64,000 bases of DNA from Temperatibacter marinus. GTDB lineage: Bacteria > Pseudomonadota > Alphaproteobacteria > Sphingomonadales > Kordiimonadaceae. The notes under the pieces were generated by a model, which did no database searches, was not told where the DNA came from, and saw only the letters and a program-made list of their open reading frames with translations. Both the position numbers and the translations under genes were made by a program. The stretch's first letter is position 1, and every line of letters starts with the position of its first letter. The stretch covers positions 310,001-374,000 of the forward strand of contig NZ_CP123872.1 in NCBI RefSeq assembly GCF_031598375.1, written 5' to 3'. Below are positions 13,007-28,656 of this stretch, one piece after another.

Positions 13007-14863
13007 ATGATGCATCCTGAGATACAAAAAAAACTATTGGCAGCTTTTGAAATTCAAAAAAAGGGACAGTTTGATCAAGCGGCCCAAGAGTATCAATCCA
13101 TCTTAAAAGTGGAGCCTAAAAACGTTCATGCCCTCAATCTTCTCGGGATGATTTATCTAGAACAAAGCAACTTTGAAAATGCCCTACCCCTTATTGAAAA
13201 AGCAACGCGCCTTCAGCCAAACGATCCGGAAGCGCAAAATAATTTAGGCCTCGCTTACAAGGGCACTGGTCAGGTCGATAAGGCTGCGCAAGCATTTCAC
13301 TCATCATTGCAGCTTGCTCCAAAAAACCCACAAGCGCTGCATAATATCGGCGCTATTAATTTTGAGGCTGGACAATATGAAGAAGCTATAAAGCTTTTTA
13401 TGCAGGCTGTCCGACTAAATCCCAATTATTTTGAATGCTTCTGTCTCCTATCAAAAGCCTTTCTAAATCTAGGTAAACTAGACGACGCTTTCGGCACCGC
13501 CCAACGAGCCTTGCAAATCAACTCAAATAATGTAGGCGGTCACTTAGCTATTGGCGAGGCTCTCTTCATGCGAAGTGATTTCAACCAAGCACTTAAAGCA
13601 TTCAGAAAAACAGTTGACCTCGAGCCTCTTAATCGTGCTGCTCAAACAAAAATCTCTGACTGTCTTATTGAGCTAGGAAAACTCGATGAGGCTGAAACAC
13701 ATTTAAAGACTGTTATCGAAAACGACAGCGATTACGTATATGCCATTCAAAGCCTTGGTATTTTGAAGGAACAGCTTGGTCATTTTGACAAGGCTGCAAC
13801 CCTTTATAAACAGGCAATTGCCTTAGCACCAGACTATGCAGAGGTCTATTACTTACTCGCTCAACTAAGAGGTCGCCCCGTTTCTGAGGAAGAGTTTCAG
13901 GCAATTCAGTCTGGATATACTGCCTCACTAGACGGAACTGAAAGTCGGCAATTTTTCGCTTTCGCTCTTGCTTGTGCTTTCGACAAAGAAAAGGACTATG
14001 AACAGTCCCTTATCTATATGAAAGAAGCACAAAGCATCATTGCTGCGGGCGCCCCTTACGATGACCAAGATGCACAGGGGAAAATTGAAGAAATCAAGAA
14101 GGCTACACTCTCGTCTTTCCAAAATATAAAAATGGATGACAAAATGCCTACCCCCATCTTTGTTTTTGGTATGCCGCGCTCAGGCACTAGCCTCGTGGAA
14201 CAAATTCTTGCTAGTCATGGGTCCATCCGGGGGGGCGGTGAAAGCACTTACATCGCGGATATGTCTGCACAAGCCAGTCAAATGGTCAGAATGTCCTTCC
14301 CACATCATATAAGAAACCTATCCAGAGAACATCTCGATATACTGCGAAAGACTTACCTTAATAGACTCGTGGAAGCGAATGGCACCGCTCCCTACATCGT
14401 AGATAAAACCCCGAGCAATTTCAAATATTTAGGTCTAATCAAAGCAGTTTTTCCGGATGCAGTTCTGATCAATTGCAGACGCGATCCAATTGATAATAGT
14501 GTTTCAATATTTAAGCTGCCTTTTGAAGCAAGCCAAACTTATGCTCATGATTTATCTGCTCTGGGTCGATACCATATGCACTACCTTGATCTAATGGATC
14601 ACTGGCAAACTACTTTTGGTAACGACATGCTTGTTGTCCATTACGAAGACAATATTCATGATCAAGAAGCAGAAGCTAAGCGTATGCTCGATCATATTGG
14701 ACTTTCGTTTGATGATGCTGTCACCCGCTTTTATGAGACAGATCGGATTGTAAAAACACCCAGTGCAAGTCAAGTACGGCAGCCTATCTTTAAAACCTCT
14801 CTAAAAATGGGAGAGCGATACGGTGAAGGTCTGAACGATTTACTCTTAGCTCTTCAGTCTTAA
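13007..14863 (+). CDS. TPR-repeat sulfotransferase
   Basis: A 618-residue protein in two parts. Residues 1-370 hold about nine tetratricopeptide repeats, shown by the repeating LG...GQ..EA....A..L.P pattern. From residue 382 there is a sulfotransferase domain with the PAPS 5'-phosphosulfate loop FGMPRSGTSLVEQIL and the 3'-phosphate region NCRRDPIDNSVSIF. Proteins of this architecture are common in alphaproteobacteria and transfer sulfate from PAPS to a protein or glycan that the repeats probably recognise. ATG 13007 is followed at once by a second ATG. It is the only plus-strand gene between the SDR and the TonB receptor and has no operator copy of its own, so it need not belong to the regulon. 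A terminator follows. Confidence 0.88.
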   Translation: MMHPEIQKKLLAAFEIQKKGQFDQAAQEYQSILKVEPKNVHALNLLGMIYLEQSNFENALPLIEKATRLQPNDPEAQNNLGLAYKGTGQVDKAAQAFHSSLQLAPKNPQALHNIGAINFEAGQYEEAIKLFMQAVRLNPNYFECFCLLSKAFLNLGKLDDAFGTAQRALQINSNNVGGHLAIGEALFMRSDFNQALKAFRKTVDLEPLNRAAQTKISDCLIELGKLDEAETHLKTVIENDSDYVYAIQSLGILKEQLGHFDKAATLYKQAIALAPDYAEVYYLLAQLRGRPVSEEEFQAIQSGYTASLDGTESRQFFAFALACAFDKEKDYEQSLIYMKEAQSIIAAGAPYDDQDAQGKIEEIKKATLSSFQNIKMDDKMPTPIFVFGMPRSGTSLVEQILASHGSIRGGGESTYIADMSAQASQMVRMSFPHHIRNLSREHLDILRKTYLNRLVEANGTAPYIVDKTPSNFKYLGLIKAVFPDAVLINCRRDPIDNSVSIFKLPFEASQTYAHDLSALGRYHMHYLDLMDHWQTTFGNDMLVVHYEDNIHDQEAEAKRMLDHIGLSFDDAVTRFYETDRIVKTPSASQVRQPIFKTSLKMGERYGEGLNDLLLALQS

Positions 14864-19446: not shown

Positions 19447-20466
19447 TTATTTATTTGATGCAAAGAGACCCACTCCTGTCATATAAACCGTATAAATCAT
19501 CCACTTTAGTGAAAAGCGAACCATCAAGGCAATCCTGGCATAATGGGCTGCCACTTTCATCTTCCCCTGCTCTTTCAAAAACAGACTAAGGTGACGGGCC
19601 ACATCCCCTTGCCCAATACGCGCCAACTCGCGGATCAAAGGCGTACGAGCATTCATATGTAAATTTGTATAAAGGCGGAATTGATACTGCAATTTTATCA
19701 ACTTTGATTGCTGTGTTGTGACTGTCTCTGCTTTGCCAGGGTCAGGAATATAATGTTTCGAAACAATTCGATCATTAATCAGCACGCGCGCCCCTTGGTC
19801 GATGGCTCGCAAATATATCTCTCGGTCCCCTTCATAGCGAAGATCTTCATCAAAAGCCCCGATGTCCAGAATAAACTGGCGGCGCAAAATGAGCGTATTT
19901 GCATGGCAAAAAATACCTTTATCGACACATTCTTCCGGACGGCCATAGTAAAATCCTGAATGTTGGGCAGGATTTTTAATAAAGCGATCGCGATTTAATC
20001 CATGCCATAATAACTCAGCAGTCTCTTCTCCTTGATGATCCACAGCCACTTGTAATGCACAGAGCATATCTGGCTGTTGCTGCGTCTGTTTGACCTCTTC
20101 TGTTAGTGCCGCTAATGAAGTGGAAAGATAGTCGGGATCCGTCCAATGGTCATCATCATCTAAAAAAGCGAGATACTCAGCTTGCGCAGCAAGAATGCCT
20201 TGATTTAAAGCATGATAGGCGCCGTGTCCCTGCAGGGAATGATCGAGTGTTATAAAAGAAACCGACGTTGGGGCTTCCTCTATAATGGCTTTATATGCTG
20301 CCCTATGCTCTTCGAGGGATCCATCATTGATGACAACAACTTGAAAGGTTACATTTTTTTGGTCTAAAACAGATGCTAAAGCCCGCTTGAAAAGAGCTGG
20401 TCTATTACGCGTGGTTATTACAACCGAAAAGTCGTAATCAACTGCTATCTCTTGATCTTCAACCAT
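19447..20466 (-). CDS. Family 2 glycosyltransferase
   Basis: A 339-residue GT-A fold glycosyltransferase of family 2. The N-terminus has the nucleotide-sugar site (SVVITTRNRPALFKRALAS) and the metal DxD region appears as AFLDDDDHWTDPDYL. A hydrophobic C-terminal stretch may anchor it to the membrane. ATG 20466 is chosen because it overlaps the sulfotransferase stop as ATGGTTGA; a TTG further upstream is less likely. It is the last gene of the minus-strand run that starts with the type I secretion genes. It should add a sugar to a lipid, polysaccharide or protein; donor and acceptor are unknown. Confidence 0.87.
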   Translation of the reverse strand: MVEDQEIAVDYDFSVVITTRNRPALFKRALASVLDQKNVTFQVVVINDGSLEEHRAAYKAIIEEAPTSVSFITLDHSLQGHGAYHALNQGILAAQAEYLAFLDDDDHWTDPDYLSTSLAALTEEVKQTQQQPDMLCALQVAVDHQGEETAELLWHGLNRDRFIKNPAQHSGFYYGRPEECVDKGIFCHANTLILRRQFILDIGAFDEDLRYEGDREIYLRAIDQGARVLINDRIVSKHYIPDPGKAETVTTQQSKLIKLQYQFRLYTNLHMNARTPLIRELARIGQGDVARHLSLFLKEQGKMKVAAHYARIALMVRFSLKWMIYTVYMTGVGLFASNK

Positions 20467-21217
20467 TTTGATTAACCCAAGCGGGCTCAATCACCATCTC
20501 CGCTTCCTTATATCCGCAAAAGGACAGAATCTCTTTGATACCCTCTTCCTTATTCATCATCTCCAAGGGGTAAACTTTGACATTTTCTGGATAGTCTAGG
20601 GCAAACATGTGTGCCTGTTTGTAATAATAATCATAATAGTGACCGATTGCTTCTTCCTTTGAGGCCGCTTCAAACGTTGGAAAACATTTGTCCCACAGTC
20701 GGTCTATGGCCCACTGTCTTCCATCATGCTCCATGAAATGATTACTTGATGAAATATAGGGCTTCCTCTTAATTAGGGCTGCACACCGATAAAGCAGCTT
20801 TTCGATGAAGCCATAGTTCAAAGTGGTTTTTTTCATAAAACTTTGTATGGTGGCAGTCCGATCTCGTTGCAGACAGACGAATTTCACGGCTGAATTCTCT
20901 GCCAGCATATCGGGCACATATTGCAGATAGTAGAGCCCCGCATCTGAAAGTACGTCAACCTTGTTTGCTACTTTTACTTTAGAAAAATCAGCGACACTAG
21001 GTTTACGGGAAAGGTCAACAGTTAGATATGAAGGATCTCCCCCTTCAATAATGGCTTTAAATTCTCGCAGTGTGTTCACCACCGGTGCCACTGTGCCCTT
21101 ATACGCCATCACCGAGGGATTCATTTCGTGAAAAGAATAGGAATTCTGCTGCTTAGCTATCATCGCAGCAAATGAATTTGTTCCACTTCGTCCTGAGCCT
21201 AACCCAATAATGATCAC
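20459..21217 (-). CDS. Sulfotransferase-family protein
   Basis: A 252-residue cytoplasmic protein with the PAPS-binding P-loop variant GLGSGRSGTNSFAAM near the N-terminus and VCLQRDRTATIQSF in the position of the 3'-phosphate-binding segment. It is therefore likely to move sulfate from PAPS onto a sugar or another acceptor. The start is a GTG with AGAAG before it. It overlaps the glycosyltransferase by 8 bases and lies 95 bases after the deacetylase-like gene, suggesting that the glycan handled by this operon may be sulfated. Confidence 0.75.
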   Translation of the reverse strand: MIIIGLGSGRSGTNSFAAMIAKQQNSYSFHEMNPSVMAYKGTVAPVVNTLREFKAIIEGGDPSYLTVDLSRKPSVADFSKVKVANKVDVLSDAGLYYLQYVPDMLAENSAVKFVCLQRDRTATIQSFMKKTTLNYGFIEKLLYRCAALIKRKPYISSSNHFMEHDGRQWAIDRLWDKCFPTFEAASKEEAIGHYYDYYYKQAHMFALDYPENVKVYPLEMMNKEEGIKEILSFCGYKEAEMVIEPAWVNQNG

Positions 21218-21312: not shown

Positions 21313-22332
21313 CTACTCTTCTGGTAATTCTTTAGCGGCAAATACTGCAAAGTCCGTGACAGAGATGAACTCTCCCCCAAGATCTTCCTTAAAATAAGTC
21401 GCGACACTGCTTAAGCAATCACAAAGGTGGTCAATATTTTCTTCACTGGCAGCATAGGGAGACCCACCCTTCATCAAGGAGGAAGAGTGATAAGCCATTG
21501 AAAAGAAGCGATCCCCTTTCGCCACTCGCTCTGCTAACAAAGAGTATAACGCTGAAGTCGGCATGCCTTCTGGTGACAAAACCACCCGGGAAATGCCGAG
21601 CCGGGAAAGCAAGCCGATTAGCTTAAGCTTTTTTGCAAGCGGATAATCAAATAGGCCGCCAAGAGCAGGCCCTATCAGGGAGAGCCACCCTGTAAAATGG
21701 CGTGTCAGGGGCTGAAAGGCCATCTGCTGTAGTTCAAAGGGTTGGTGAGGTGCACGCAAATAATTAGTGCCACCATCTTGATATTGGTAAGTGCCGTTTG
21801 GAACTACGCTCAAATCTATTTCATAACCTGCACGGTGTAGCAGTGCGATACTATTTGGGCCAAGGCCGTATCGTCCTGCCTTAAAAATCTTTGGGGAAAA
21901 GCCTATTCGCCTCTCAAAAAGGGCTGTGATGGTCTCGATTTTTTTAAATTCCAGATCCTCAGACAGGTTCCCTTGATAGCTATTGTAGGCAGAAACTTCT
22001 TCCTCATAAGGGGGCGTCAGCCAAGGGTGAAGGTGAACACCTAAATCTATTTCACCGAGGCCGTGTAACGTCTTGAAGTACTCAACTGACCAATCATCTT
22101 CCAGCACTGCCTGATCAAGTACGTAACAAGGCTTAATGTCAAAGGTTTTAAAAACCGCCTGATGCATACGATGTTGATGTTTGATATTTTCTACAGACCG
22201 TGCTGACCTAGAAAAAGGCGCAGACCAGTCAAATTCTTCTTCTGTATCAATAACCACGGTCATCAAGGGATGAGTGAGGTCTTGGACAGCATTCTTCATA
22301 ACAAGGCTATCTCGCTTTACAACTTCATCCAT
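21313..22332 (-). CDS. Polysaccharide deacetylase-like protein
   Basis: A 339-residue protein with a NodB-type barrel. The early metal motif is seen as VVIDTEEEFDW, the histidine motif as GVHLHPW, and a late one as MAYHSSSL. This matches carbohydrate esterase 4-like proteins that act on capsule, teichoic-acid-like or other surface glycans. ATG 22332 is chosen because it overlaps the upstream stop as ATGGATGA with GAGAGG before it; the longer open frame is a shadow. No signal peptide is seen, so it probably works on a cytoplasmic precursor. Removal of an acetyl group is inferred from the family. Confidence 0.75.
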   Translation of the reverse strand: MDEVVKRDSLVMKNAVQDLTHPLMTVVIDTEEEFDWSAPFSRSARSVENIKHQHRMHQAVFKTFDIKPCYVLDQAVLEDDWSVEYFKTLHGLGEIDLGVHLHPWLTPPYEEEVSAYNSYQGNLSEDLEFKKIETITALFERRIGFSPKIFKAGRYGLGPNSIALLHRAGYEIDLSVVPNGTYQYQDGGTNYLRAPHQPFELQQMAFQPLTRHFTGWLSLIGPALGGLFDYPLAKKLKLIGLLSRLGISRVVLSPEGMPTSALYSLLAERVAKGDRFFSMAYHSSSLMKGGSPYAASEENIDHLCDCLSSVATYFKEDLGGEFISVTDFAVFAAKELPEE

Positions 22333-24010
22333 TATGAGACCTCTCAATATACTCAATAATTTTAGCGCCTGCTGCCTCAATCTGAGCATAACAGGCATCA
22401 AAAGCGTCTCGCCCCTTTCCATAGGGGTCAACAATATCCTGTGGTTGATTTAAGAAATCCCCCACATTCAACGATTTAGAGAAGGATTCCGGATAAAATG
22501 CTTGTATGTCATCTTCGTTTTTATGATCAAAATAAAGAATGAGATCTGCCTTCTCCATAAGAGACGGCGATGCATAACGCGACCGGTGTGCTCCCAAACT
22601 CTGCCCTAATTTTTCCGAGGCCGCTTTCGCATCAGGCGGAGACATACGCGCTTCAGGCATATGAAATCCTGCACTTATCACTGAGATCTGATTGTCATCA
22701 AAGTGATTCTGAAGATACTGCCCGAGGAAGGGGCTTCGACAAATATTGCCGTAACAAAGAACCAGTATGTTTTTGAGAGGCTTAGAGGACAGCGAACATT
22801 TCTGGTGATGCGCTGTTTTTCGATCTATTGCTGTGCGCCCCAAAAGTTTACGTATTTTGTTGTTGATCATCTTCTTCAAGCTCGCCCATTCCTGTTCAAA
22901 TGGTGCTGGATCATCCTTACTCTGGGTATCAATCGTCGCTTTATTGATCAAATGATGAAAGGCTGCCTTTAGTCCATGAAAGACCAGAGACACCGCTTTA
23001 CTGAAACTATTTTTCTGCTCTAAAGATCTATTCAAGTCATAAATTGACGCTGTTAATGCTCGAGAGATTTTTCCCGCAGTATAAGAGAAATTTTTCGCAC
23101 ATGCCTTTTTCCTCTGCAAGCTTTCTATGTAGAGCGATGGGAAATCTACCCCTGCAAATAGAGCTAAAGGTAAGGACCCCCAAAAGCGGGCGTTCACCTC
23201 TAATAAACAATGGGCTTTAGTAGAGGGGTTGTAGCGAAACTCAAACATAGCAACGCCGTTCAACTGTGTAGCCTCCGCCAGTTTCTTCACATCCTTCAGC
23301 ATGACTTTAGAGAGGGGAACAGATTTCCTGATACTACTGCCACCTGCAATCCCTTCGCTTACTCTTTCATGTTGAAACGCATGGCTTACCTCTCCTGCCC
23401 AAGCAAGGACAGAAACGCCGACACCGATGCCTTCAAATGACGATTCCAGGAAATACTCTTCGTGATGATCAAGAGAAGAAAGGTTGGCCTCTAATTCTTG
23501 CATAGAGCCTATCTTCACTACCATTTGTTTCCCAGACAATTTATCCAGCGTTATGCTTGATTTAGGCTTTAAGAAAAGGGGGTAATGATGTGTATCATGT
23601 GGCGTATCAATCATAGAGACTTCGGGCCTTGCAATACCCAATTTGACTGCCAATTCATGTGTTTCCCATTTATCTATAAAAGTCGAAAAGGCTCTGTCCC
23701 CTGGGGTTGCAATCTTATCGCTATTGATACCATGCTCTTTAAGCATCAACGGCACCATAGCTTGATCTGTGCAAGGAATGATATAATCAAAAGCCTCATT
23801 TTGATCAAGCTGAGTAAGAAGCATCAACCACCTATCGAGGTCACTATAGGCGGGGGCAATTTTATGAATTTTTTTAATGAACGAGGAGGAAAGAGATATA
23901 GAATTTAATCGTTCAGGCAAAACATGGACTTCATGCCCTGCCCGTCCCAATGAGCGCACGACCGCAAGAAAACTTCTTAAATCATCACCAATGACTAGTA
24001 TTTTCGCCAT
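22325..24010 (-). CDS. ATP-grasp / low-molecular-weight tyrosine phosphatase fusion
   Basis: A 561-residue protein joining two enzymes. Residues 1-310 form an ATP-grasp unit: an N-terminal Rossmann-like part (KILVIGDDLRSF), lysine at KPKSS and the metal residues E257, E271 and N273 in CLLEVNARFWG. ATP-grasp enzymes join a carboxylate to an amine, thiol or other group via an acyl phosphate. After a linker of about 100 residues, 412-561 form a low-molecular-weight phosphotyrosine phosphatase: CX5R loop CYGNICRS (C419, R425) and the general acid in VDPYGKG (D528). Phosphatases of this type often control Wzc-like polysaccharide kinases. The gene is 84 bases after the secretion adaptor and overlaps the deacetylase-like gene by 8 bases. 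Confidence 0.85.
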   Translation of the reverse strand: MAKILVIGDDLRSFLAVVRSLGRAGHEVHVLPERLNSISLSSSFIKKIHKIAPAYSDLDRWLMLLTQLDQNEAFDYIIPCTDQAMVPLMLKEHGINSDKIATPGDRAFSTFIDKWETHELAVKLGIARPEVSMIDTPHDTHHYPLFLKPKSSITLDKLSGKQMVVKIGSMQELEANLSSLDHHEEYFLESSFEGIGVGVSVLAWAGEVSHAFQHERVSEGIAGGSSIRKSVPLSKVMLKDVKKLAEATQLNGVAMFEFRYNPSTKAHCLLEVNARFWGSLPLALFAGVDFPSLYIESLQRKKACAKNFSYTAGKISRALTASIYDLNRSLEQKNSFSKAVSLVFHGLKAAFHHLINKATIDTQSKDDPAPFEQEWASLKKMINNKIRKLLGRTAIDRKTAHHQKCSLSSKPLKNILVLCYGNICRSPFLGQYLQNHFDDNQISVISAGFHMPEARMSPPDAKAASEKLGQSLGAHRSRYASPSLMEKADLILYFDHKNEDDIQAFYPESFSKSLNVGDFLNQPQDIVDPYGKGRDAFDACYAQIEAAGAKIIEYIERSHNG

Positions 24011-24094: not shown

Positions 24095-25441
24095 TTAATC
24101 TTCTCTCATAGAGCGTCTGACTAAGTCGGTAATTGGATCTAGAAAATATTCCATGGCAGTACGTTTACCAGCTTCAATAAGAATTTCCACAGGCATTCCA
24201 GGTAAAAGTGTTTCATTTTTCACTCTAGAAAATTCTTCAGGGCTAATAAAAATCCGCACCTCAAAAAACTGTTCTCCTGTGATATCATCTTTCTTAGCAT
24301 CCCCTGATACATCCATCACCGTCCCCTTTAATTCAGGTGTCGTTCTTTGCTTTAATCCTGATAGTCTTATTCTTACAGGCATGGTGGCGATCACATTATC
24401 TGCATCCGTTGGCTTAATCCTTCCCCTTACAAAAAGGCCATCCATAGGAACAATATCTAGAATTGGCTGCCCCGGAGGAATAACACCACCAACAGTAAAG
24501 ACAGAAAGCCCAATTACTTTTCCAGCTTGAGGTGCAATAATTTCTGATCGGATATAAATATCTCTAGCAGCAATAAATTCCTCTTGAAGTTCAAAAAGTT
24601 GCTCTGTCACTGACATCGTTTTTTCTTCAACATCCTGCCGTCGGTCATGTGTAAGCTGGAGTATTTGCATGCGGGTTTCACTGATGCCGATGGCAGCGGC
24701 ACTAACATCTGTATTCAAGCGTGCAATCATGCCTTCAGCCTGTGTTTTTTCTTTTCTTTGCGCAAGGACACGAGGCAAGTCAACTGTGCCCCTTTTGGCC
24801 AGCTTTTCAAGCCGGTTGAGTTCATCCTGAATATACGTAAGCTCTTCTTTCTTGGCATTGAGTTGGGCTGCAAAACCTTTTTTCTGCCCCTCTAGCTGCT
24901 TCACCTTTTCCTGTAAAATGCCAATTTCACCATTCAATTGATCTCGCCGCGCATTGAATAAATTCTCTTGGGCGATACGGATGCCTTGTTTATTTCTTTC
25001 ATTTCGGATAGGAACCGCAGGCGCTGTCCATGTAATCTTTTTGAGGTCACTGCGCTCTGCAGTTAATCGGTCTAGGATGGCTTGGGTCATCAAAAAGCGT
25101 GTTTCTAACAAATTCAACCTTACTTCAGCACGCGTCTGATCCAAGCTGATTAGTCGTTGACCTTGGCTCACTTGTTCACCCTCTTTGATGTGAACCTTTG
25201 CAACAATTCCGCCCTCTAAATGTTGAATTGTTTTTCTATTGCCATCAGCAACGAGCGACCCTTGAGAGACGACGCCCTCAGAAAGCGGTACAAACAGTGC
25301 CCATAAGAGAAAGAATCCAAATCCCAGCCCTGCGATCCAAAGTCCGTAAACAGAAACGCGCAGACTATCTGGCTTTTCGAGGCCATCTTCAGGTCCAAAG
25401 TCTTGCCAAATTTTCTCAATCCATTGAGTAAGCTTACTCAT
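24095..25441 (-). CDS. Type I secretion membrane-fusion protein (HlyD family)
   Basis: A 448-residue adaptor of the HlyD/PrtE type. One transmembrane helix lies at about residues 30-50, followed by a biotinyl-lipoyl-like half (GNRKTIQHLEGGIVAKVHIKEGEQVSQGQ), a long coiled-coil hairpin to about residue 290 (many E, K, Q and L) and the second lipoyl half with a beta-barrel (IIAPQAGKVIGLSVFTVGGVIPPGQPIL). It links the inner-membrane ATPase with a TolC-type outer-membrane channel. Its start overlaps the ATPase stop as ATGA. Confidence 0.92.
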   Translation of the reverse strand: MSKLTQWIEKIWQDFGPEDGLEKPDSLRVSVYGLWIAGLGFGFFLLWALFVPLSEGVVSQGSLVADGNRKTIQHLEGGIVAKVHIKEGEQVSQGQRLISLDQTRAEVRLNLLETRFLMTQAILDRLTAERSDLKKITWTAPAVPIRNERNKQGIRIAQENLFNARRDQLNGEIGILQEKVKQLEGQKKGFAAQLNAKKEELTYIQDELNRLEKLAKRGTVDLPRVLAQRKEKTQAEGMIARLNTDVSAAAIGISETRMQILQLTHDRRQDVEEKTMSVTEQLFELQEEFIAARDIYIRSEIIAPQAGKVIGLSVFTVGGVIPPGQPILDIVPMDGLFVRGRIKPTDADNVIATMPVRIRLSGLKQRTTPELKGTVMDVSGDAKKDDITGEQFFEVRIFISPEEFSRVKNETLLPGMPVEILIEAGKRTAMEYFLDPITDLVRRSMRED

Positions 25442-27198
25442 TCTACTTCTCCTTTAAGAGGAGTATCTTTTATCTCAGGCGCCACTTTGGAAAATTGCTT
25501 AATGACAGCTTCCGTCGTATCAAACTGCCTCACTTGCCCTTCATGTAAAACAAGCATATGGGTTGTCATCTGCATCAATCTCACATTATGAGAAATTAAG
25601 ACGGTGCAGATATCCTCATGCCGAAGCAGCTGGATAACTTTCACAAGCTCCTGCTCACCGACTGTATCTAAATTGCTGTCCGGCTCGTCAAGTACGACCA
25701 AAAGCGGATCCCCAAAAAGAGCTCTTGCTAAGGCTATGCGCTGTGCTTGTCCTCCTGATACGACGAGACCACCTGGGCCAATTTTAGTCTGATAACCTTC
25801 GGGAAAGGCAAGGATAAGATCATGACATTGGGCGCGCTCTGCAGCACGAATGATATGAGCATCCTCAACCTCAGAAAAGCGGGCGATATTTTGGGCGACA
25901 GTACCGGGAAAGAGTTCGACGGACTGCGGTAAATATCCAATCAACTCTCCCTTTTGCTGATTATTAAACTGAGTGACCTCAACCCCGCCAAGCCGAACAG
26001 CGCCCCGCGTAGGTTTCACTGTTCCAATAAGATAGTTGCTCAGATAGGTTTTCCCTGCACCGCTTGGCCCAATAATACCTAGGGTCGACCGAGTGGGGAT
26101 GTCAAATGTAATGCCTTTTAAAATCGCATCATGGCCACTTTTTCCTGCCACTAAGGATTTCACAGACAACCGACTATCTGGCCTCGGCAAATCTAAATGT
26201 TCTTCTAAGTCTGCCAATTCATCTAGGCGGGCCCGCATTCTTCTATAAGCTGCATTGGCTTTCACAATCTGACGCCAGACGCCAATGGCTTGCTCAACAG
26301 GCGCAAAAGCACGGCCCGCAAGAATTGAGCCTGCAACAATGGCTCCTGCGGTGATTTGCTGTTGAATAGCAAGATAGCCACCAAGACCAAGCATGCCGAT
26401 TTGAAGCCCCAGCCTCAGAGCTTTGGTAATCCCAAGCAGTAAGCCAACTCTCCCGTTTGCCGCGCCTTGAAGCATAACACTAGGGTCTCTATCATGAGTC
26501 CAATTTGATTTAATACCATCTGCCAAATTCATCGATTGCAGTACAGCGGCATTTCGTAGGCTTGTATCAAAAAAATTATTGGCTAATGCCCCATGCTTCG
26601 CTGCCTCTTCCATTAAGGGCTTTGAAAGACGATCCGTCGCAATCGCAAGCAATAATATAAGCAGAGCCCCCACTAAAGCAAAAAGGCCGAGAAGGGGGTG
26701 AATAAGAGCAATAACTAGAATAAAAAGGGGCGCCCAAGGCGCGTCGAAGAAAATCAACGGAGCATTGCTGCCAATGAATTGTCTCACAGTATCCAGGTCC
26801 CGAACTATTTGCCCAGCTTGACTACCGCGAGCTGCATCTCCTACAGCAATTTTAAAGGTATCTTCTCGTGTAATGGCGTCTAGCTCAACGCCGAAATGCA
26901 CTAGCATTCTATTCCTTATGGAATCGAGTGCCCCAAAGATGATCAATAGCAGCAAGGCAATACCCGTTAAGGCGATCAATGTTTCGACACTACCATTAGA
27001 CATAACACGATCATATAATTGCAACATATAGATTGGTGAGACCAGAAAAAGTAGATTCACAATGGCGGAAAATAAAATCACTCGCACAACGATTTTTCTC
27101 GCCCGCGTGACGAGTCTTTCAGATTCTTTTGACCAACTTTTAAAAAGCGACACTCTTTTACCCCTGTAATCCTCGACCTTTACAACACTGTATGCCAT
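25438..27198 (-). CDS. Type I secretion ABC transporter (PrtD-like)
   Basis: A 586-residue exporter half-transporter. A membrane part with about six helices (residues 35-310) is followed by the ATPase: Walker A GPSGAGKTY, signature VVSGGQAQRIALARAL and Walker B LLVVLDEPDSNLD. It lacks the N-terminal C39 peptidase-like region of HlyB, as PrtD-type exporters do, and these usually move RTX proteins with uncleaved C-terminal signals. No RTX or other substrate gene is visible nearby. The gene leads the minus-strand run and is divergent from the TolC-like gene. Confidence 0.92.
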   Translation of the reverse strand: MAYSVVKVEDYRGKRVSLFKSWSKESERLVTRARKIVVRVILFSAIVNLLFLVSPIYMLQLYDRVMSNGSVETLIALTGIALLLLIIFGALDSIRNRMLVHFGVELDAITREDTFKIAVGDAARGSQAGQIVRDLDTVRQFIGSNAPLIFFDAPWAPLFILVIALIHPLLGLFALVGALLILLLAIATDRLSKPLMEEAAKHGALANNFFDTSLRNAAVLQSMNLADGIKSNWTHDRDPSVMLQGAANGRVGLLLGITKALRLGLQIGMLGLGGYLAIQQQITAGAIVAGSILAGRAFAPVEQAIGVWRQIVKANAAYRRMRARLDELADLEEHLDLPRPDSRLSVKSLVAGKSGHDAILKGITFDIPTRSTLGIIGPSGAGKTYLSNYLIGTVKPTRGAVRLGGVEVTQFNNQQKGELIGYLPQSVELFPGTVAQNIARFSEVEDAHIIRAAERAQCHDLILAFPEGYQTKIGPGGLVVSGGQAQRIALARALFGDPLLVVLDEPDSNLDTVGEQELVKVIQLLRHEDICTVLISHNVRLMQMTTHMLVLHEGQVRQFDTTEAVIKQFSKVAPEIKDTPLKGEVE

Positions 27199-27309
27199 AT
27201 CTTGCTCTTAATGAAAAAGCTATATATCACTATGATTGATCGTTATGAAACTATAAAGAAAAAAGCAAAAATTTCGGATATATTGTAACGATACCTTGAG
27301 GAGACTTCC

Positions 27310-28656
27310 ATGCGCCGCTTAATAATCGCTCCCCTTGCGACTGTCCTAATGATAACCCCTGCATCAGCCGCTCAATGTTTAACAAGCCCTGCTGCAGAAA
27401 AAAGCATCACCACCTCAGTTCTTTCCTTGAAAAGGGTTTTAGAACTGACCCTAGAAAATGATCAACGCATTGAAGCCGCAAGATTTGGTATTGATATGGC
27501 GCGCCATGACCTATCTGATGCCAAGTCTTTCTATCGACCAAAGATCTCCGGCATTGGTCGTCTGTCTGTGAATGACCGGCCAACCCTTGTCCAACAATCC
27601 ATCACAGGGGCTGAGCAACGATTAGATCAGGATGGCACAAGCTATTACGGAGGCCTTGAGGTTTCACAAAATATATACGGATTTGGTCGCTACGCGGCCT
27701 TAATCGGAAAGAACAAAGCCGCTATTGAACAAAACCGATATCATTTAAAAATGACCGAGCAAGAAGCGCTTCTTGAAGCCATCTTTGCTTATCTTGACTA
27801 TGGCAGCGCCTTAGCCCGCCACAAAGCCTTTGAAGCCTATTCAGCAGATATGCGTGACTTAGTAAAAAGAACCAAAGATAAGTTCGACAATCAGCTTATA
27901 GGACGGGGTGAGTTCATGCTTGTTCGCTCAAGACTACAGCAAGCGAAAGCCTCTCTCAATACAAACAAAATCTCTACAACACGCGCTTTCCAGCGCTTGG
28001 CAAAGTTAATTAACAAGCAAGATTTTGATATAAACGTACAACAATTTCCCACCTATGAGCGCTTCCTTCCCAAAACTCTCAACGAAGCAATTGATCGCTC
28101 TCAAGAGTATGACCCTCGAGTAAAAGCGGCTCAGGAATTAGTAAAAATAAAACAATTAGAAGCCAAATATTCTAAAGCCCAAAGCCATCCGCAAATCAGC
28201 CTTTCTGCCAGTGTTGTCAGAGGTCAAGGGCAATTGGAAGAAAGAAGCACTCAGGAAGCAGTCGTAGGTCTAAATCTCTCTATGCCCCTCTATGACGGTG
28301 GTAGCACACGGTCAAAAACACGCCGTGCAAAATCTGCAACAAATCAAGCCAATGCCCTGCTTGTCGACGAAGTTGCCAGTGCTGAAGAAAGAGTGACTGC
28401 GGCTTGGAAAATTTATGAAAGTTTACAGGTGAGTGAATTAACTTGGGCAAAGGCTTATGATGCTGAAATGAAAGCAGTAGAAGAAATCAAACAAGAAGTT
28501 GATAATCAACTGAGCTCTCTTATTGTGCTCCTGGAAGCGAGAGAACAACTGGTCCAGACTGAAGTAAACAAAATCTCCTCAGTCTATGAAAAACTAAAAT
28601 CAGGGTATGAGCTTCTTACATATTCTGGGAAACTAACTGACCTACTGAAACCCTAG
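27310..28656 (+). CDS. TolC-family outer-membrane channel
   Basis: A 448-residue outer-membrane efflux protein. The signal peptide ends near PASAA. Two similar halves with long helices follow, with family features such as LKRVLELTLENDQRIEAARF near the start and LSLPLYDGGSTRSKTRRA-like segment (NLSMPLYDGG) in the second half. It provides the exit duct for the divergent ABC exporter and adaptor. The 111-base gap between the divergent genes should hold both promoters. Confidence 0.9.
   Translation: MRRLIIAPLATVLMITPASAAQCLTSPAAEKSITTSVLSLKRVLELTLENDQRIEAARFGIDMARHDLSDAKSFYRPKISGIGRLSVNDRPTLVQQSITGAEQRLDQDGTSYYGGLEVSQNIYGFGRYAALIGKNKAAIEQNRYHLKMTEQEALLEAIFAYLDYGSALARHKAFEAYSADMRDLVKRTKDKFDNQLIGRGEFMLVRSRLQQAKASLNTNKISTTRAFQRLAKLINKQDFDINVQQFPTYERFLPKTLNEAIDRSQEYDPRVKAAQELVKIKQLEAKYSKAQSHPQISLSASVVRGQGQLEERSTQEAVVGLNLSMPLYDGGSTRSKTRRAKSATNQANALLVDEVASAEERVTAAWKIYESLQVSELTWAKAYDAEMKAVEEIKQEVDNQLSSLIVLLEAREQLVQTEVNKISSVYEKLKSGYELLTYSGKLTDLLKP

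What the first reader, a model, noticed from the sequence alone, without database searches (positions are those of the whole stretch)
22325..24010. Fusion of ATP-grasp ligase and tyrosine phosphatase
Both halves keep their key residues (E257, E271, N273; C419, R425, D528) in one 561-residue frame. The combination joins a ligase activity with a phosphatase type that usually controls polysaccharide kinases. It suggests that the state of surface-glycan synthesis is tied to a modification step.
Basis: partly seen in the sequence, partly recalled or inferred. Interest (0 to 1): 0.6.

Follow-up and report, generated by a model that had tools for sequence, protein, structure and literature searches.

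The report
Ligase–phosphatase fusion for bacterial polysaccharides
One bacterial gene joins an enzyme that makes chemical bonds using ATP to a tyrosine phosphatase, and it usually travels with a sugar-trimming-type enzyme in gene clusters for surface polysaccharides, so it may link how the polymer is modified to how its production is switched.

Summary
The fusion is real. It lies on the minus strand (24010 to 22325): one 561-residue frame with an ATP-grasp domain, helical linker and low-molecular-weight tyrosine phosphatase (LMW-PTP). It is no sequencing error: 51 distinct records, the window included, hold it (Alpha-, Beta- and Gammaproteobacteria), and the catalytic residues are invariant in 47 of 47 aligned. 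It is rare: 4 of 398 sampled Pseudomonadota, own genome included. The next gene, overlapping by 8 bases, encodes a NodB-fold deacylase-like protein that no Pfam model matches; a relative lies within 2.5 kb in 43 of 51 records. The XrtA/PEP-CTERM tyrosine autokinase scores over cut-off in 26 of 47 fusion genomes, 35 of 200 phylum-sample genomes and 0 of 25 genomes with unfused relatives; in 18 of the 47 it lies 8-42 kb from the fusion. Best reading: a cytosolic module that N-deacylates an amino sugar and re-acylates it with an ATP-activated acid, carrying a phosphatase that answers to polysaccharide tyrosine phosphorylation. Against a simple kinase-partner story: in the window genome the XrtA locus is far off, three genomes have a separate phosphatase beside the kinase, and haloarchaea pair the two proteins without that kinase. 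Substrates and coupling are untested.

The parts
22325..24010 (-). Fusion gene, 561 aa, ATG start at 24010, TGA at 22327-22325
23111..24010 (-). ATP-grasp domain, residues 1-300; E257 codon 23242-23240, E271 23200-23198, N273 23194-23192
   Evidence: Pfam; fold matches; conservation
22775..23110 (-). Helical linker, residues 301-412; D361, D367, P370 are invariant in all 52 rows of alignment A3, six unfused relatives included, so it belongs to the ligase half
22328..22774 (-). LMW-PTP domain, residues 413-561; C419 codon 22756-22754, R425 22738-22736, D528 22429-22427
22325..22332 (-). 8-base overlap of the fusion's stop with the likely ATG of the next gene; ribosome-binding-like GAGAGG at 22345-22340
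   Evidence: read directly
21313..22332 (-). Partner gene, 339 aa, NodB/CE4-fold deacylase-like protein (the mechanical ORF list gives a longer TTG start at 22434)
20459..21217 (-). Sulfotransferase-like neighbour (PF17784, 23.1 bits, barely over cut-off 22.8); membership in the module uncertain
19447..20490 (-). Family 2 glycosyltransferase; belongs to a neighbour cluster found in 27 of 86 sources

Best explanation
The protein is a two-headed enzyme of exopolysaccharide building, probably cytosolic (inferred; no signal-peptide program was run). Step 1 (inferred): the coupled NodB-fold partner removes an N-acyl group from an amino sugar of a polysaccharide precursor. Step 2 (inferred from fold and site): the ATP-grasp half activates a carboxylic or amino acid as an acyl phosphate and joins it to the freed amine. 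Step 3 (inferred): the LMW-PTP half removes phosphate from tyrosines of the polysaccharide export and polymerisation machinery, most likely a BY-kinase such as the XrtA-associated autokinase, so that the modification enzyme sits at, or is timed by, the cycling export complex. Shown: the fusion, both intact active-site residue sets, a high-confidence model, the overlapping partner gene and the locus association. Not shown: substrates, the phosphatase target and any crosstalk between the halves.
For: Fused frame in 55 of 109 records holding either domain, 51 after removing four records with identical frames (L001, L029, L040, L083). Catalytic residues invariant in 47 of 47. Model pLDDT 93.1, pTM 0.91 (no pairwise-error map was seen). 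Ligase half nearest to 2pn1 (Z 27.3), PylC (Z 27.2) and L-amino acid ligases (3vot Z 24.7; 4wd3 Foldseek E 2.9e-16), though biotin carboxylases and PurK score close behind. Partner within 2.5 kb in 47 of 55 records, 43 of 51 distinct, against 2 of 40 unfused loci, both cut off by contig ends; candidate start overlaps or abuts the fusion's stop in 25 of 29 downstream cases; NodB/CE4 fold, e.g. HP0310 Z 21.3, ArnD Z 17.6. A different NodB-type gene is the same-strand neighbour (under 1 kb) of the ATP-grasp gene in 5 of 40 unfused loci, with a sixth match too weak to count. XrtA autokinase over cut-off: 26 of 47 fusion genomes, 35 of 200 phylum sample, 0 of 25 genomes with unfused relatives, 0 of 14 control genomes; same contig and 7.6-42 kb away in 18 of 47. 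PTP half best matches AmsI and Wzb.
Against: In the window genome the XrtA locus lies at 3.010-3.029 Mb, the fusion at 0.33 Mb. In 3 of 18 genomes with a linked kinase (G108, G135, G142) a separate LMW-PTP lies 2.7-2.8 kb from that kinase. Of 34 other XrtA-kinase genomes, 12 have no LMW-PTP match at E 1e-8 and only two have one on the same contig within 50 kb of the kinase, one of them the fusion itself (many of these genomes are fragmented), so the kinase does not need such a partner. Four haloarchaea have LMW-PTP next to ATP-grasp but no kinase match. Below the cut-off, 3 of the 25 unfused genomes still have an XrtA-like kinase at 185-210 bits (G346, G086, G348), so the contrast is not absolute; and 21 of 47 fusion genomes do not reach the cut-off. 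The genome counts are not independent: the fusion genomes were chosen for the fusion and cluster in a few families.
Confidence: 0.4

Rival explanations
1. The phosphatase half acts on a small molecule or on a phosphorylated intermediate of the same pathway (or relieves phosphate on the ligase itself) rather than on a tyrosine kinase; the fusion is a metabolic, not a signalling, coupling.
For: Four haloarchaea keep LMW-PTP and ATP-grasp as adjacent genes with no XrtA kinase match at E 1e-10; separate LMW-PTPs lie beside the kinase in 3 of 18 genomes; two genomes of the window's family and order have convergent LMW-PTP and ATP-grasp genes, in one of them with the LMW-PTP on the end of a membrane acyltransferase-like frame (the name acyltransferase-like is my reading of the sequence).
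Against: Sequence matches are to protein-tyrosine phosphatases of polysaccharide systems first; none of 25 genomes with unfused relatives has the XrtA kinase over its cut-off.
Confidence: 0.25
2. The halves are functionally independent: an ordinary Wzb-like phosphatase and an ordinary glycan-modifying ligase fused only for equal expression or placement, without gating.
For: Linker residues D361, D367 and P370 are conserved also in the six unfused relatives of alignment A3, and unfused relatives form nested groups in the ATP-grasp tree, so the ligase works without the PTP half.
Against: Unfused loci lack the NodB-fold partner (38 of 40) and over-cut-off XrtA kinase (25 of 25 tested); the model is compact with pTM 0.91, although that score does not show crosstalk.
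Confidence: 0.3
3. The frame is an artefact that joins two genes.
For: None found.
Against: 51 distinct records with the fused frame; the window genome is a single contig with completeness 100.
Confidence: 0.01

Closest known systems
LMW protein tyrosine phosphatases of polysaccharide systems (Wzb, AmsI, VpsU)
   Same: CX5R(S/T) loop, Asp-Pro loop, over-cut-off PF01451 match, best solved-structure matches AmsI and Wzb
   Different: The matched solved chains are of about 150-170 residues; here the domain is the C-terminus of a ligase. The VpsU-VpsO pair as a kinase-phosphatase precedent is taken from the abstract of PMC7485978.
PylC and L-amino acid ligases (ATP-grasp carboxylate-amine ligases)
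   Same: ATP-grasp fold over residues 1-379 (PylC Z 27.2)
   Different: 14% identity to PylC; no known substrate; carries an extra phosphatase domain
NodB/CE4 deacylases (HP0310, PuuE, ArnD)
   Same: Partner shares the fold (Z 21.3, 20.3, 17.6)
   Different: 0 of 44 partner proteins match any Pfam model at E 0.01; conserved motifs read EEE and HLHPW rather than the classical NodB motifs (the classical motifs are recalled)
XrtA/PEP-CTERM exopolysaccharide system
   Same: Loci near the fusion hold PrsT-like proteins, flippases and glycosyltransferases, and in 18 of 47 genomes the XrtA-type kinase
   Different: No NCBIfam model describes the fusion. A word search of the main text of PMC1569441, the 2006 PEP-CTERM/EpsH paper, finds neither phosphatase nor ATP-grasp (passages only).

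Membership tests
LMW protein tyrosine phosphatase (PF01451) | Curated domain score | tested here: met
   68.4 bits, cut-off 23.2
LMW protein tyrosine phosphatase (PF01451) | Cys and Arg of CX5R(S/T) and catalytic Asp of the DP loop | tested here: met
   C419, R425, S426, D528, P529 invariant in 47 of 47
Wzb (equivalog) | Dephosphorylates a cognate BY-kinase | not testable with these tools
   only co-occurrence and distance tested
Wzb (equivalog) | Equivalog model score for Wzb (PRK10126) | tested here: not met
   65.4 bits against a cut-off of 243; so it is not filed as a Wzb
ATP-grasp superfamily | Fold and Mg-ATP ligands | tested here: met
   PF15632 over cut-off; Z 27 to 2pn1 and PylC; K148, E189, E257, E271, N273 invariant in 47 of 47; their roles are assigned from family knowledge
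Carboxylate-amine ligase (PylC-like) | ATP-dependent amide bond formation | not testable with these tools
   fold only
NodB/CE4 deacylase (partner gene) | NodB-type fold | tested here: met
   HP0310 Z 21.3 over 235 residues, rmsd 3.1; GH57 enzymes also match
NodB/CE4 deacylase (partner gene) | Match to a Pfam polysaccharide deacetylase model | tested here: not met
   0 of 44 members match any Pfam family at E 0.01
NodB/CE4 deacylase (partner gene) | Metal site and catalytic base | tested here: inconclusive
   E31-E33, H100, H102, R154, D173 and H282 are at least 95% conserved in 46 rows, but their roles are not shown
XrtA/PEP-CTERM polysaccharide system component | System present in the window genome | tested here: met
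   autokinase, deacetylase, FemAB, ATPase and glycosyltransferase over cut-off; exosortase over the general exosortase cut-off but 181 bits against 208 for XrtA; amidotransferase and chain-length models below their cut-offs
XrtA/PEP-CTERM polysaccharide system component | Gene lies in the system's locus in the window genome | tested here: not met
   fusion at 0.33 Mb, locus at 3.01-3.03 Mb; kinase linked within 42 kb in 18 other genomes

The most novel reading that the evidence does not exclude
A phosphotyrosine-linked glycan editing enzyme: the phosphatase half reads or resets the tyrosine state of the polysaccharide export kinase, and this state gates amide modification of the repeat unit by the ligase half together with the NodB-fold partner, so polymer chemistry and export cycle are set by one protein.
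Probability: 0.25. Interest if true: 0.75.

Novelty: new variant of a known kind. Interest (0 to 1): 0.5.

Why it matters
Bacterial tyrosine kinases and their phosphatases are known to set polysaccharide output (VpsO-VpsU, abstract of PMC7485978). A phosphatase built into an enzyme that would change the polysaccharide's chemistry offers a direct, testable link between signalling and polymer structure. The recurring three-activity unit (ligase, phosphatase, NodB-fold protein) also gives a concrete hypothesis for a gene pair that databases leave unnamed: 'ATP-grasp domain-containing protein' and 'hypothetical protein' in the annotated Vibrio alfacsensis plasmid.

Tried and rejected
Sequencing-error or chance explanation: rejected by homologues.

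'The fused PTP is the missing dedicated phosphatase of the XrtA kinase': weakened, not kept as fact. Of 34 XrtA-kinase genomes in the phylum sample only two show an LMW-PTP on the kinase's contig within 50 kb, and three fusion genomes have a separate one by the kinase.

One-origin test: the PTP-domain tree puts the 50 fused rows on one side of a branch, but with support of only 38/63. In the ATP-grasp tree a 63-row group (support 98) holds 48 fused rows, which is every fused row long enough to enter, and 15 unfused ones (two of them, L079 and L081, cut by contig ends); one fusion with later losses fits, inner support is moderate. The group-statistics part of that second tree's output was cut from view.

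Viral contigs: no match to the six peptide patterns used. Paper searches with combinations of ATP-grasp, low molecular weight, tyrosine phosphatase, fusion, exosortase, WalW, polysaccharide deacetylase, exopolysaccharide, capsular polysaccharide and amide listed no paper whose title or abstract start describes this architecture; I saw listings only, apart from passages of PMC3684757, PMC1569441 and PMC8620434 and the outline and abstract of PMC7485978. The held library lacks most subscription papers, so absence from print is not claimed. The name WalW for the partner's family is recalled and comes from no call. A Bordetella O-antigen parallel (wbmS; PDB 3hft appears) was looked for (listing only) and not pursued.

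One search printed 42 unfused loci where one search lists 40; one search shows why (three fused loci, L034, L053 and L078, have a second ATP-grasp frame that could overwrite their class), and 40 is the number used. L019's NodB match (E 3.6e-5, fragmentary) was dropped, leaving L008, L102, L105, L106 and L107. Nine unfused loci (L003, L007-L012, L019, L021) have flanks of about 1.5 kb, so a partner further off would be missed there. One search tested 25 genomes chosen by me: those of 25 of the 40 unfused loci (the four haloarchaeal pairs included); the genomes of L003, L008-L012, L019, L021, L079, L081, L094, L103 and L105-L107 were not in it.
Full report
What is there. The frame at 24010-22325 runs on the minus strand and encodes 561 residues. 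Pfam finds ATPgrasp_Ter (residues 188-301) and LMWPc (415-547), both over their cut-offs. The best solved-structure sequence matches of the C-terminal part are the exopolysaccharide phosphatases AmsI (E 8e-16) and Wzb (E 5e-14 to 7e-14). AlphaFold2 on alignment A3 (52 rows) gives pLDDT 93.1 and pTM 0.91 with no residue under 50. The ligase half resembles 2pn1, PylC and L-amino acid ligases, with biotin carboxylases and PurK close behind, so the fold says ATP-grasp carboxylate activation and not which amine or acid.

Is it real and is it kept? In the window's own genome it occurs once at full length. Among 98 genomes searched, the window's own included, three others have a full-length or near-full-length match (46, 36 and 34% identity). 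A scan of genome contigs with alignment A1 returned 80 loci, the ceiling; 140 of 150 candidate stretches were relatives, so the list is a part. A six-frame profile scan finds both domains in one frame in 55 of 109 records that hold either domain; four records repeat others with identical frames (L001, L029, L040, L083), leaving 51, the window included. They are Alpha-, Beta- and Gammaproteobacteria, among them Acetobacteraceae, Rhodoferax, Vibrio and Photobacterium. Of the 55, eight were dropped before counting residues (the four duplicates; L074, L088, L090 cut by contig ends; L078 broken over two frames); in the remaining 47 the catalytic residues of both halves are invariant. In an even sample of 398 Pseudomonadota genomes, six have a match at E 1e-40, four of them full-length, the window genome included: rare, scattered, conserved.

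The partner. The fusion's stop overlaps by 8 bases the ATG of the next gene (22332), with GAGAGG seven bases upstream of that ATG. In 47 of 55 fused records (43 of 51 distinct) a relative lies within 2.5 kb; the exceptions are L035, L057 and L062 (none found), L036 (weak match 3.4 kb off), L065 (2.9 kb) and the contig-cut L074, L088, L090. Among 40 unfused loci only L079 and L081 have it, and both ligase frames run off their contigs. Of 29 downstream cases a candidate start overlaps or abuts the fusion's stop in 25 (four of these read by eye from the printed bases), is 9-10 bases off in three and 2.7 kb off in one. No Pfam model matches any of 44 partner proteins, but the model (pLDDT 92.1) has the NodB/CE4 fold, with HP0310, a Mycobacterium smegmatis deacetylase, PuuE and ArnD among the matches; GH57 enzymes share the fold and also rank, so fold alone does not fix the chemistry. 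In five unfused loci (L008, L102, L105, L106, L107) a different NodB-type gene is the same-strand neighbour of the ATP-grasp gene. That recurrence is my main reason to think of deacylation followed by ATP-driven acylation.

The setting. Among 86 sources, duplicates and unfused loci included, recurrent neighbours are family 2 glycosyltransferases (27), flippases (25), O-antigen-ligase-like membrane proteins (14), GNAT/FemAB-like proteins (12) and PrsT-like TPR proteins (10) (cluster names are my reading of their sequences and, where it is a member, of the annotated Vibrio alfacsensis plasmid). The XrtA-associated tyrosine autokinase (TIGR03018) scores over its cut-off in 26 of 47 genomes with the fusion, in 35 of 200 of a phylum sample, in 0 of 25 genomes whose ATP-grasp relative is unfused and in 0 of 14 control genomes. 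At 150 bits or more the first two are 42 of 47 and 46 of 200 (my count's rows), and the third is 3 of 25. In 18 of the 47 the kinase lies 7.6-42 kb from the fusion on the same contig. These samples are neither independent nor matched for kinship, so I take from the Fisher values the direction only.

The window genome. At 3.010-3.029 Mb it has the XrtA kinase, deacetylase, FemAB, ATPase and glycosyltransferase over their cut-offs and an exosortase over the general exosortase cut-off; the XrtA-specific exosortase, amidotransferase and chain-length models are matched below theirs. No LMW-PTP lies there; the genome's four LMW-PTP-like places are at 0.33 (the fusion), 0.70, 1.47 and 1.83 Mb. The fusion's own surroundings hold a weak sulfotransferase match and a glycosyltransferase downstream and a type I secretion pair upstream. 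So in this genome any link to the XrtA kinase would act at a distance.

Results against a simple kinase-phosphatase story. Three of 18 genomes with a linked kinase (G108, G135, G142) carry a separate LMW-PTP 2.7-2.8 kb from the kinase. Of 34 XrtA-kinase genomes in the phylum sample, 22 have any LMW-PTP at E 1e-8; on the kinase's contig within 50 kb only G158, which is itself a fusion, and G161; several of these genomes are in many contigs. Haladaptatus (L097, L099, L101) and Halosimplex (L108) have LMW-PTP and ATP-grasp as adjacent same-strand genes without a kinase match at E 1e-10. G071 and G013 have the two as convergent neighbours; in G071 the LMW-PTP ends a membrane acyltransferase-like frame.

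Evolution. The ATP-grasp tree has one group (98) with 48 fused and 15 unfused rows, the latter a nine-row group (Maritalea, Chelativorans, Bradyrhizobium and kin; support 89), a four-row group (Erythrobacteraceae, Parasphingopyxis, G086; support 93) and the two contig-cut rows; the unfused pairs of haloarchaea and of L008 and L011 lie outside. One fusion and later loss of the phosphatase half together with the partner is the simplest reading; the support inside is moderate.

Verdict. The fusion is a real, rare, conserved two-domain protein of polysaccharide loci with a usually adjacent NodB-fold partner. The modification chemistry is a reasonable inference; the phosphatase target and any gating are open. 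VpsO-VpsU (abstract of PMC7485978) shows that such kinase-phosphatase pairs can set polysaccharide output. I found no description of the architecture in the searches named under Tried and rejected; NCBIfam matches it only with models of its parts, all below their cut-offs.

Noticed in passing
L008 2722-4032 (minus): An LMW-PTP domain forms the C-terminus of a multi-helix membrane acyltransferase-like frame (my reading), next to an ATP-grasp gene that has a NodB-type gene on its other side: a second kind of phosphatase fusion to a possible glycan-modifying enzyme.
   Followed up: partly
window 13007-14863 (plus): TPR repeats fused to a sulfotransferase domain (PF13469, 134.5 bits) in one 618-residue protein.
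   Followed up: no
window 24095-28656: Type I secretion set: HlyD-type adaptor and PrtD-type ABC transporter on minus, TolC-type outer membrane protein divergent on plus; no substrate looked for.
   Followed up: no
L112 409-2399 (minus): Frames that read like a nucleotidyltransferase and an HPr(Ser)-kinase-like protein (my reading, not scanned) beside the XrtA locus of the window genome; an HPr(Ser) kinase/phosphatase gene is listed in the Rubrivivax PEP-CTERM locus table (PMC3684757, passages).
   Followed up: no
genome G104, contig C323 7168-8379: A second relative (40% identity, residues 2-397) in an 822-residue open frame; domain content beyond the ATP-grasp part not examined.
   Followed up: no
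L097, L099, L101, L108: Haloarchaea encode an LMW-PTP gene directly upstream of an ATP-grasp gene, in overlapping or abutting stop-to-stop frames.
   Followed up: partly
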